Shown here in pieces: positions 33,299-35,202 of a DNA stretch of 64,000 nucleotides. The position numbers and the translations under genes are program-made. Source of the stretch: Bradyrhizobium paxllaeri. Its GTDB lineage: Bacteria; Pseudomonadota; Alphaproteobacteria; Rhizobiales; Xanthobacteraceae. The notes beneath the pieces were generated by a model. The model saw nothing but the letters and a program-made list of their open reading frames with translations, searched no databases and was not told where the DNA came from. Numbering within the stretch: the stretch's first letter is position 1; each line of letters opens with the position of its first letter. The stretch spans positions 2,666,001 to 2,730,000 of the forward strand of contig NZ_CP042968.1 of assembly GCF_001693515.2 (NCBI RefSeq), read 5' to 3'.

Positions 33299-33988
33299 TC
33301 AATCGTGCAATTGCCAGCGGCCGATGACCCGAAACCGCGAAGTCGCATCGTCCTGACGGCATAGCGCGATGGCGTCGATCGCGAGCGTCTCCATGCCGGT
33401 TGCCGCAAACCGCTCGCGCAGCATCGCCACGACCGGCCCGCGCCGTTCCGCGGGCAACCGCCCCGTCAGTGTCATGTGGAAGCGAAATTCTTCGAAGACG
33501 TAAGGATAACCCCAGCGGTCGAGATAATCGCGTTGCCGTGGCGTCAACGCCGCCGGATTGCGCCGCGCGCGATCTTCCCCATTGAGGGGAGCGCGGAACG
33601 GATCAAATGCCTTGGTCGCCTCGGCGGCAAGCAGGTCGAGATCTGCCGACGGTTCGGCGGGAATGACCGCGATGAAACCGCTGATCGAATCGACGATCGG
33701 CCGGATCACCGGCACCGGCCGGGCGAGATCGGCAAACAATTCGCATGCCGCGGCAAGCCGCGCCTCGGCCTTGCCGTCGGCCAACGTGATCGGCGCCTTC
33801 AGCGTGGCGTGAAAGCCGTATTTGCGCGGATCCTGCGTCAGGTCGCGCCAGTCCGGTGGGAGACCATCCGGAAAGGGAAGGTCTTCGCCGCTGTGGGTGT
33901 CGTAGCCGAGCAGCGACGCGCCGAACCGGTCGAGCGCACTGTCGGGTGCCGAGGTGTAATAGATTGCGTAACGGGGAAAGTTTGCCAT
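33299..33988 (-). CDS. DUF1045 phosphonate-associated 2H phosphoesterase-like protein
   Basis: A 229-residue protein of the DUF1045 phosphonate-operon family. It has two HxT motifs in the spacing of 2H phosphoesterases: His60-Ala-Thr62 (KYGFHATLKAP) and His171-Met-Thr173 (FRFHMTLTG). 2H enzymes open cyclic phosphates. It is the third gene of a Pho-box-headed operon (transferase, PhnM-like, this). No PhnP is visible in the locus, so it could do the cyclic phosphate step of C-P lyase; that is a hypothesis. Confidence 0.88.
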   Translation of the reverse strand: MANFPRYAIYYTSAPDSALDRFGASLLGYDTHSGEDLPFPDGLPPDWRDLTQDPRKYGFHATLKAPITLADGKAEARLAAACELFADLARPVPVIRPIVDSISGFIAVIPAEPSADLDLLAAEATKAFDPFRAPLNGEDRARRNPAALTPRQRDYLDRWGYPYVFEEFRFHMTLTGRLPAERRGPVVAMLRERFAATGMETLAIDAIALCRQDDATSRFRVIGRWQLHD

Positions 33989-34008
33989 TGCGCCAGAATA
34001 GAGCCGCC

Positions 34009-35202
34009 TTACGCGGCTGCAACCGCCTTGCGTGGAATGGCAGATGAACGAACGAGACGGTTCGCCTCCGTCAGATGCACCAGTCGTCCCGCGGCAATGA
34101 CGGCGACTACCCGCGGCCGCAACGGCACCGTGTCATCGATGAGAATGATGTCGGCGCGCTGTCCCGCGGCAAGCGTGCCGCGATCGGCGAGGCCGGCGGC
34201 GCGCGCCGGCGCCGATGAGATCAATTGCCAGGCCGCGGCCAGCGGCACGACGCCGTCAGCCGCAAGCCGGAAAGCCGCCAGCAGCGGCGCGGGATAGTAA
34301 TAGTCTGACGCCAGCACCGAGCACAGGCCCTTGGCGATCATGTCGGATGCCCTGGTCCAGCCGGTGTGGCTGCCGCCGCGCACGACATTGGGCGCGCCGA
34401 ACACGATGAAGTCGCCGGCTTCGGCAGCATCGCGGGCAGTTTCCTCGTTGACCGGAAATTCGGCAATGGCGACACCCCGCGCACGAAAGGTCTGCCGCAT
34501 CGCCGGGCTCTCATCGTCATGCGAGAGCATCCGGACATCAGCCGCACACGCCGCCTGCGCCAGGCGGGCGATCGACGCCGGAACGTCGTGGCCGCGGCAG
34601 ACCACGCTTTCCACCAGGCGATCGAACGCCTCATTGCTGAGCCCCGTGCGCTCGACCATCCGGCTGCGCTTCTGTGGCTTGGCGAGGCTGGCGACGGTCG
34701 AGTCCATATGATCGTTGAACGCGAACAGGTCGACGCGGCCTTGCCCCAGCCAGTCGATGATTTCGCTTTCCGCGTCGAGATTGTAGGTCTCGTGGCGCAA
34801 ATGGAAGCGGGTGTCGGCGGCGAGTTGTGGCCGCATCTGCTCGATCGCCTCCAGCAATTTCCGCGCATTGTCCGCGCTGCGCAGGCCGGGCTCCCACGAC
34901 CACGTCGTGGCATGATAGACGGTCGTAATCCCGTTGCTGACCGCCTGCCGGTCGCTATCGACAAGCGCCACATCGATCGGAAAATCGACTCCGGGGCGCG
35001 GCATCATCTGCCGCTCAAAGGCATCGCCATGCAGATCGACAATGCCCGGCAGCACCAGCAGCCGGCTGGCGTTGATGCCCGTTGCGCCGTGGCTGTCGTC
35101 CGCACCCACGGCGGCGATCTCGCGGCCGGCGATCCGCAAGCCGGTTTCGACGATTTCATTGCCGAGCAGCGCTCGGCCACCTTCGATGAACAGTTCGGTC
35201 AC
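34009..35202 (-). CDS. Second PhnM-like amidohydrolase (triphosphate diphosphatase family)
   Basis: A 397-residue protein with the PhnM layout: VLPGIVDLHGDAFERQMMPR, FNDHMDSTVASLAKPQ, MLSHDDESPAMRQ, FGAPNVVRGGSHTGW and SVLASDYYYPAPLLAAF. Its metal-site loop reads HGDAFERQ where the cluster's other PhnM (45096) has HTDHLEMH, so the two are distinct paralogues. The start is a GTG at 35202 overlapping the stop of the upstream gene by 4 bp. It probably removes pyrophosphate from a ribosyl phosphonate triphosphate or related compound. Confidence 0.85.
   Translation of the reverse strand: MTELFIEGGRALLGNEIVETGLRIAGREIAAVGADDSHGATGINASRLLVLPGIVDLHGDAFERQMMPRPGVDFPIDVALVDSDRQAVSNGITTVYHATTWSWEPGLRSADNARKLLEAIEQMRPQLAADTRFHLRHETYNLDAESEIIDWLGQGRVDLFAFNDHMDSTVASLAKPQKRSRMVERTGLSNEAFDRLVESVVCRGHDVPASIARLAQAACAADVRMLSHDDESPAMRQTFRARGVAIAEFPVNEETARDAAEAGDFIVFGAPNVVRGGSHTGWTRASDMIAKGLCSVLASDYYYPAPLLAAFRLAADGVVPLAAAWQLISSAPARAAGLADRGTLAAGQRADIILIDDTVPLRPRVVAVIAAGRLVHLTEANRLVRSSAIPRKAVAAA

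What the first reader, a model, noticed from the sequence alone, without database searches (positions are those of the whole stretch)
33299..35199. Accessory phn operon may supply the missing PhnP step
The C-P lyase set phnGHIJKLMN is present, but no PhnP-type cyclic phosphodiesterase is visible. A Pho-box operon on the other strand encodes a hexapeptide transferase, a second PhnM-like hydrolase and DUF1045 with two HxT motifs (His60/Thr62, His171/Thr173). 2H phosphoesterases open cyclic phosphates, so DUF1045 is a good candidate for opening ribose 1,2-cyclic phosphate 5-phosphate. The role of DUF1045 and of the second PhnM are both inference.
Basis: partly seen in the sequence, partly recalled or inferred. 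Interest (0 to 1): 0.75.

Follow-up and report, generated by a model that had tools for sequence, protein, structure and literature searches.

The report
DUF1045 stand-in for phosphonate enzyme PhnP
This soil bacterium breaks down phosphonates without the usual enzyme PhnP, and a neighbouring gene of a different protein family probably does that step; the idea is already in print, but the same gene and a PhnM-type gene also turn up together in some bacteria that lack the core of the pathway.

Summary
A Pho-box operon on the minus strand (35864 to 33299) encodes a TIGR03308 hexapeptide transferase, a second PhnM and a DUF1045/TIGR03223 protein, divergent from phnCDE-F-GHIJKLMN. The complete 8.38 Mb genome has no PhnP over cut-off.

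The reading that DUF1045 opens the cyclic phosphate in PhnP's place is well supported but not new. Martinez 2013 (PMC3840354) proposed it, with a phnP-less clone restoring growth to an E. coli deleted for phnHIJKLMNOP; PMC8235418 credits it to Hove-Jensen 2014, and PMC10574752 reports an earlier survey.

Added here: of 103 PhnJ-positive genomes, 76 have DUF1045 only, 25 PhnP only, 0 both, 2 neither. The PhnJ tree needs only two switches, so this is not independent evidence. The predicted fold (pLDDT 97) matches 2H phosphoesterases, including the plant enzyme for ADP-ribose 1'',2''-cyclic phosphate.

Unexpected: in genomes without PhnJ, a PhnM accompanies DUF1045 in 9 of 11, against 2 of 210 genomes without DUF1045; five have the second-PhnM type. 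The pair may also have a job outside C-P lyase.

The parts
33299..33988 (-). DUF1045 / TIGR03223 protein, two HxT motifs; candidate phosphoribosyl 1,2-cyclic phosphate phosphodiesterase
34009..35202 (-). second PhnM (PhnM2 clade), conserved PhnM residues kept
35199..35864 (-). hexapeptide-repeat transferase TIGR03308 (phn_thr-fam); solved relatives are acetyltransferases
35923..35940 (-). Pho-box-like site upstream of the three-gene operon, conserved in relatives
   Evidence: consensus typed from recall
36054..36867 (+). phnC, split over two overlapping frames in this assembly
36942..37850 (+). phnD (TIGR03431)
37919..38806 (+). phnE1 (TIGR01097)
38803..39657 (+). phnE2 (TIGR01097)
39673..40401 (-). 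phnF regulator (TIGR02325)
40437..40454 (+). weaker Pho-box-like site (3 mismatches) upstream of phnG; not distinguishable from chance by itself
40513..40989 (+). phnG
40979..41596 (+). phnH
41599..42702 (+). phnI (PF05861)
42699..43583 (+). phnJ (PF06007)
43573..44376 (+). phnK
44384..45082 (+). phnL
45096..46250 (+). phnM1, the canonical PhnM (NF011983)
46247..46846 (+). phnN, ribose 1,5-bisphosphokinase (TIGR02322)

Best explanation
The minus-strand operon is the accessory half of a standard alphaproteobacterial C-P lyase locus, probably under phosphate control. DUF1045 is a 2H phosphoesterase. It most likely opens 5-phosphoribosyl 1,2-cyclic phosphate, the product of PhnJ, to ribose 1,5-bisphosphate, which PhnN turns into PRPP; so it replaces PhnP. 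PhnM2 is an anciently separate, probably active PhnM paralogue of unknown substrate. The hexapeptide protein is probably an acetyltransferase unrelated to the PhnP step. Shown here: gene content, absence of PhnP, mutual exclusivity, predicted fold, motif conservation. Inferred: substrate, bond broken, and the roles of PhnM2 and the transferase.
For: No PhnP over cut-off in the complete genome. Among 103 PhnJ-positive genomes of 397 sampled: DUF1045 only 76, PhnP only 25, both 0, neither 2; one family (f46) has two DUF1045 genomes and one PhnP genome. In all 25 PhnP genomes PhnP lies within about 5 kb of PhnJ on the same strand. In five loci of one genus (g10: L029-L032, L054) DUF1045 sits with PhnM and PhnN and no core genes, while PhnJ lies elsewhere in the genome (G071, the source of L054, also has core-linked copies); so it can travel with the downstream half of the pathway. 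10 columns are invariant in 43 members, among them H60, T62 and H171, T173 at 90% or more (I had left out 8 of 50 candidates, 3 of them motif-less); in the wider set 57 of 61 copies keep both motifs. Model pLDDT 97.2, pTM 0.92; the ten best matches by Z are YjcG (14.9), LigT (up to 13.7), a phosphoesterase 4qak and Arabidopsis CPDase (13.4), and CPDase entries are titled as acting on Appr>p, a ribose 1,2-cyclic phosphate (chemistry recalled). Literature: a cluster without phnP but with the 2H gene, phnM1 and a hexapeptide transferase restored growth on methylphosphonate to E. coli deleted for phnHIJKLMNOP (PMC3840354, passages).
Against: The PhnJ tree needs only two switches between the PhnP and DUF1045 types; an independent-pairs test has two pairs, p 0.5. 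11 genomes carry DUF1045 without PhnJ or PhnI. In six PhnJ-positive f17 genomes (G245, G265, G267, G271, G387, G395) the only DUF1045 is outside the phn locus, on another contig or over 0.6 Mb away (in G267 it is at a contig end). Two PhnJ-positive genomes have neither gene. In the passages I read, the complementing clone was not tested with the 2H gene removed, so a native E. coli enzyme could have done the step. Matches of DUF1045 to the other 2H Pfam models are below their cut-offs.
Confidence: 0.75

Rival explanations
1. DUF1045 and PhnM work as a pair on a C-P-lyase-independent task, such as repair of the cyclic breakdown product of PRPP or clearing of other ribosyl cyclic phosphates; their presence in phn loci is recruitment of that pair.
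For: In genomes without PhnJ, a PhnM match (E 1e-30 or better) is found in 9 of 11 with DUF1045 and 2 of 210 without it, Fisher p 1e-12 uncorrected for ancestry; within family f17, 6 of 6 against 0 of 4. PhnI is absent in all 11. Each of the 11 has a DUF1045 copy with both HxT motifs. They fall in five alpha or other families; those with PhnM are in f3, f5, f17 and f69.
Against: Most DUF1045 genomes do have PhnJ (76 of 88). Two of the 11 have no PhnM, only 3 have PhnN. Only 6 of the 9 PhnM matches pass the family cut-off; the other 3 genomes have only the PhnM2 type at 267-270 bits. In several the two genes are far apart. Some could be leftovers of decayed operons. That PRPP breaks down to the cyclic phosphate is recalled, from no call.
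Confidence: 0.25
2. DUF1045 acts at another phn step or on another substrate, and the PhnP step in these genomes is done by an unrelated enzyme.
For: PHP-type enzymes can do the step elsewhere (recalled); the genome has 3 PHP-domain proteins; DUF1045 genes outside phn loci exist.
Against: Two of the three PHP hits lie in frames of 1170 aa, as expected of DNA polymerase III alpha (recalled), and none is in the phn locus. DUF1045 has a fold fit for the chemistry.
Confidence: 0.12
3. The anticorrelation is only shared ancestry: alphaproteobacterial phn loci happened to carry DUF1045 and enteric ones PhnP, with no functional link.
For: 71 of 71 same-class PhnJ genomes have DUF1045 and none PhnP; two switches on the PhnJ tree.
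Against: Of 7 PhnJ genomes outside the class without PhnP, 5 have DUF1045, in two families; literature complementation without phnP.
Confidence: 0.1

Closest known systems
RcsF/DUF1045 2H phosphoesterase of Rhodobacteraceae phn clusters (Martinez 2013, PMC3840354; PMC5649143; PMC8235418 citing Hove-Jensen 2014)
   Same: Same gene set: C-P lyase without phnP, 2H gene, second phnM, hexapeptide transferase; same proposed role. The order phnM, rcsF, phnN, phnL in PMC5649143 (passage) matches DUF1045's place in f17 loci here.
   Different: The window's genus places the three genes in a separate Pho-box operon divergent from phnCDE.
E. coli PhnP (TIGR03307)
   Same: Same proposed reaction and pathway position.
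   Different: Unrelated protein family; metallo-beta-lactamase fold (recalled) versus 2H fold.
Arabidopsis CPDase (1fsi, 1jh6) and E. coli LigT (5ldi etc.)
   Same: Fold and two HxT/S motifs (motifs of these enzymes from a listed abstract and recall); CPDase entries are titled as acting on Appr>p.
   Different: 11-16% identity; different substrates; shorter chains.
PhnM, NF011983/TIGR02318
   Same: PhnM2 keeps H58, D60, E138, H165, H228, D229, D230, D300 in line with PhnM1 (their catalytic role is recalled).
   Different: 34% identity to PhnM1 of the same locus; separate clade, SH-aLRT 100; Asn163, two residues before the conserved His165, where PhnM1 has Met.

Membership tests
TIGR03223 / PF06299 (DUF1045) | score over curated cut-off | tested here: met
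   265.7 vs 248.95 bits; 185.9 vs 24.3
2H phosphoesterase superfamily | two HxT/S motifs in symmetric positions | tested here: met
   HAT at 60, HMT at 171; H60, T62, H171 invariant in 43 aligned members, motif-less copies left out beforehand
2H phosphoesterase superfamily | 2H fold | tested here: met
2H phosphoesterase superfamily | other Pfam 2H models over gathering score | tested here: not met
   PF13563 18.5 vs 27; PF02834 14.8 vs 23.3; these are other 2H families, PF06299 is its own, so this is not a condition of superfamily membership
2H phosphoesterase superfamily | cyclic phosphodiesterase or RNA ligase activity | not testable with these tools
   needs an assay
PhnP functional equivalent | hydrolysis of 5-phosphoribosyl 1,2-cyclic phosphate | not testable with these tools
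   needs an assay; none seen in the papers searched
PhnP functional equivalent | complementary distribution with phnP among phnJ genomes | tested here: met
   0 of 103 both, 101 of 103 exactly one
PhnP functional equivalent | complementarity independent of ancestry | tested here: inconclusive
   two switches only, sign test p 0.5
PhnP (TIGR03307) | score over cut-off anywhere in genome | tested here: not met
   best 37.5 vs 272.25
PhnM (TIGR02318), for PhnM2 | score over cut-off and conserved residues | tested here: met
   397.1 vs 390.55; residues kept in 97% or more of 25 PhnM2 rows
PhnM (TIGR02318), for PhnM2 | ribosyl triphosphate diphosphatase activity | not testable with these tools
   needs an assay
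TIGR03308 hexapeptide transferase | score over cut-off | tested here: met
   343 vs 201.65

The most novel reading that the evidence does not exclude
PhnM (in five core-less genomes of the PhnM2 type seen in this window) and DUF1045 form a functional pair that outlives C-P lyase: a ribosyl-phosphate salvage or repair unit, sometimes with PhnN, that acts on ribose cyclic phosphates or 5-triphosphates arising without PhnIJ, for instance from PRPP breakdown, and that C-P lyase recruited.
Probability: 0.25. Interest if true: 0.65.

Novelty: already known. Interest (0 to 1): 0.42.

Why it matters
If DUF1045 is the PhnP of Alphaproteobacteria, a missing step of C-P lyase in soil and marine bacteria that take phosphate from phosphonates (and release methane from methylphosphonate) is filled, and a domain of unknown function can be renamed. 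The genomes that keep PhnM and DUF1045 without the C-P lyase core make a further question testable: what ribosyl phosphates these enzymes see when there is no C-P lyase.

Tried and rejected
A hidden PhnP in this genome: rejected; only weak hits, 37.5 bits and less. A PHP-type substitute in the phn locus: none among the genes there; 3 PHP hits elsewhere, not followed further. The hexapeptide protein as part of the PhnP step: rejected, since it also sits in four PhnP-type loci (L095, L100, L105, L107). Two separate DUF1045 families (phn-linked and lone): the lone copies are clustered on the tree (11 changes against 17.8 in shuffles, 0 of 500 as low) but starred branches force at least 6 changes, so they are not one family. 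A solved structure of a close DUF1045 relative: none by sequence (best E 0.36). A sequence link from the name RcsF to DUF1045: names given by sources among the 120 rows listed read DUF1045 or (putative) phosphonate metabolism protein, so the link rests on gene order and is my inference. The main sources Podzelinska 2009 and Hove-Jensen 2014 are not held (one search was a wrong guess at an id); I quote them only through passages of PMC10574752 and PMC8235418.

Limits of the survey: one phylum, 397 genomes. First looks are capped: in the rows shown at most 6 candidates per genome were scored for PhnP, 9 for DUF1045, 8 for PhnN. The PhnJ tree has 84 rows (58 DUF1045, 24 PhnP, 2 neither) from 83 of the 103 genomes, those whose PhnJ locus I had fetched; G352 fell out because another frame won its PhnJ place, and the window's own PhnJ was not in it. 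The PhnM control covers 210 of the 282 genomes without PhnJ and DUF1045. G180 (weak DUF1045, 37.8 bits) was left out of the 11. Four genomes had weaker PhnP-like hits (93-108 bits, under the cut-off); none has PhnJ. Gene labels in the neighbourhoods come from BLAST against this window's proteins, so other ABC ATPases are often labelled PhnK or PhnL, and a gene can be masked by a longer frame. On the PhnM tree the core-less label needs at least 7 changes, but two genomes enter twice, so this is not a count of losses.

Full report
What is there. The window lies in an 8.38 Mb genome in one contig; close DUF1045 relatives are in Bradyrhizobium, the closest 97% identical in B. lablabi CCBAU 23086. 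On the minus strand a tight three-gene operon runs from 35864 to 33299: a TIGR03308 hexapeptide transferase, a second PhnM, and a DUF1045/TIGR03223 protein. It is divergent from phnCDE1E2, phnF and phnGHIJKLMN, supported by family models (phnC is split). A Pho-box-like site with 2 mismatches lies 58 bases upstream of the operon. 16 of 2000 random pieces of the same length hold one as good, and 26 of 28 related loci scored have a site with at most 3 mismatches upstream of the same gene. All 11 genomes of the genus with PhnJ in the sample, the window's included, carry the three genes beside the phnCDE genes (in L114 the DUF1045 was masked by another frame in my labelling but one search places it there).

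No PhnP. The PhnP model finds nothing over cut-off in the whole genome; the best hit has 37.5 bits against 272.25. Three PHP-domain proteins exist elsewhere, none in the phn locus.

Distribution. In 397 genomes of the phylum, PhnJ occurs in 103, PhnP over cut-off in 25, DUF1045 in 88. Among the 103: DUF1045 only 76, PhnP only 25, both 0, neither 2. All 71 PhnJ genomes of the window's class have DUF1045. Of the 32 others, 25 have PhnP, 5 DUF1045, 2 neither. The two with neither group with a PhnP holder on the PhnJ tree and lack phnP where relatives have it. On a tree of 84 PhnJ proteins the two types need only two switches, and the independent-pairs test has two pairs, p 0.5. So the pattern is striking in numbers but weak as an independent test. 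The literature reports an earlier survey of 54 operons, 27 with phnP and the 2H gene in 16 without it (PMC10574752, passages).

Fold and active site. In 43 aligned members (8 of 50 candidates left out, 3 of them motif-less) H60, T62 and H171 are invariant and T173 nearly so; 57 of 61 copies keep both motifs. The model has pLDDT 97.2 and pTM 0.92. The ten best matches by Z are YjcG (14.9), E. coli LigT (up to 13.7), phosphoesterase 4qak and Arabidopsis CPDase (13.4); AKAP18, Usb1 and trypanosomatid mitoribosomal proteins follow. CPDase entries are titled as acting on Appr>p, whose 1'',2''-cyclic phosphate is chemically like the phn intermediate (recalled chemistry).

Gene partners. DUF1045 keeps company with PhnM and PhnN. 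In L029-L032 and L054 it sits with PhnM and PhnN without core genes, while PhnJ lies elsewhere in the genome (in L032 the DUF1045 frame was masked in my labelling, one search places it there). Of 80 named relatives (the best 80 of 171), 67 have a PhnM in the fetched stretch, 37 have PhnI or PhnJ, and none has PhnP (15 of the 80 stretches were cut short by a contig end). The hexapeptide gene occurs with DUF1045 and with PhnP alike, so it is not part of this step.

The second PhnM. PhnM2 shares 34% identity with PhnM1 of the same locus and lies in its own clade, SH-aLRT 100. The positions conserved at 97% or more in both clades (97 and 25 rows) hold the same residue except one: Asn163 in PhnM2, Met in PhnM1, two residues before the conserved His165. 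PhnM2 is therefore probably an active enzyme with a different substrate preference; that is inference. Each of the 25 PhnP genomes has one PhnM match.

Life without C-P lyase. Eleven genomes have a clear DUF1045 but no PhnJ and no PhnI, a twelfth genome given as positive control having it. Nine of these eleven have a PhnM match, six over the family cut-off, three only of the PhnM2 type below it. Of 210 genomes without PhnJ and DUF1045, two have one, both of one genus; Fisher p 1e-12, ancestry not corrected. Within family f17 it is 6 of 6 against 0 of 4. Five f17 genomes carry the PhnM2 type. In L017 and L019 the gene order looks like a phn locus from which the core was cut out, leaving PhnM, DUF1045 and PhnN, and no remnant of phnG-L was found there. 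PhnN is in 3 of the 11; it is also in 10 genomes without PhnJ and DUF1045, all of family f47. Third codon positions differ 1.7 to 3.1 times as often as second positions in pairs of core-less copies, and 2.0 to 2.9 times in one core-bearing pair: no sign of relaxed constraint, though much of that divergence may date from before the loss. These genes may be leftovers, but their joint survival suggests a task of their own.

Known or new. Martinez 2013 proposed that the 2H protein replaces PhnP and showed that a cluster without phnP, with a second phnM and a hexapeptide transferase, lets E. coli deleted for phnHIJKLMNOP grow on methylphosphonate (PMC3840354, passages). PMC8235418 (passages) credits the DUF1045 proposal to Hove-Jensen 2014. 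PMC10132767 (one passage) lists a DUF1045 protein raised with PhnI, J, L and M under phosphate stress. The finding is therefore known. One search was aimed at PhnM without PhnJ and found no paper; that is thin ground for calling the core-less pair new.

Noticed in passing
window 36054-36440 and 36283-36867 (+): phnC is split over two overlapping frames, while 10 of 11 related loci examined have one open frame (L050 not found by that filter): a frameshift or an assembly error.
   Followed up: partly
L012:8593-9300, L022:8725-9432, L023 (start 8390), L024:8590-9297: A second DUF1045 copy in family f3, next to an MnmC-like pair and purine-degradation genes (named from sequence by eye), lacks both HxT/S motifs in these four loci (an HLS in L024 lies elsewhere), yet changes mostly at third codon positions; L025 and L026 in the same neighbourhood keep the motifs. 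A likely pseudoenzyme with a kept role.
   Followed up: partly
L017, L019, L011, L009: PhnM-DUF1045(-PhnN) clusters in genomes without PhnJ and PhnI.
   Followed up: yes
L050 (G185): The phnCDE next to the triad are only 30-46% like the window's although the rest of the locus is 75-97% alike: the transporter seems to have been swapped.
   Followed up: no
G170:C103:104374-117931 (L048 in part): Two broken DUF1045 copies, each matched in two pieces, in a genome with three PhnJ copies.
   Followed up: no
L168:10001-10675: DUF1045 beside PhnM in a contig binned as Anaerolineae (another phylum), 42% identity: transfer or mis-binning.
   Followed up: no
window 30315-33286 (+): A tripartite tricarboxylate transporter (TctC, TctA) converges on the DUF1045 gene.
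   Followed up: no
L028:5000-5420: A short repeat-rich stretch sits where phnP would be expected in the PhnP-less genome G323 (by eye).
   Followed up: no
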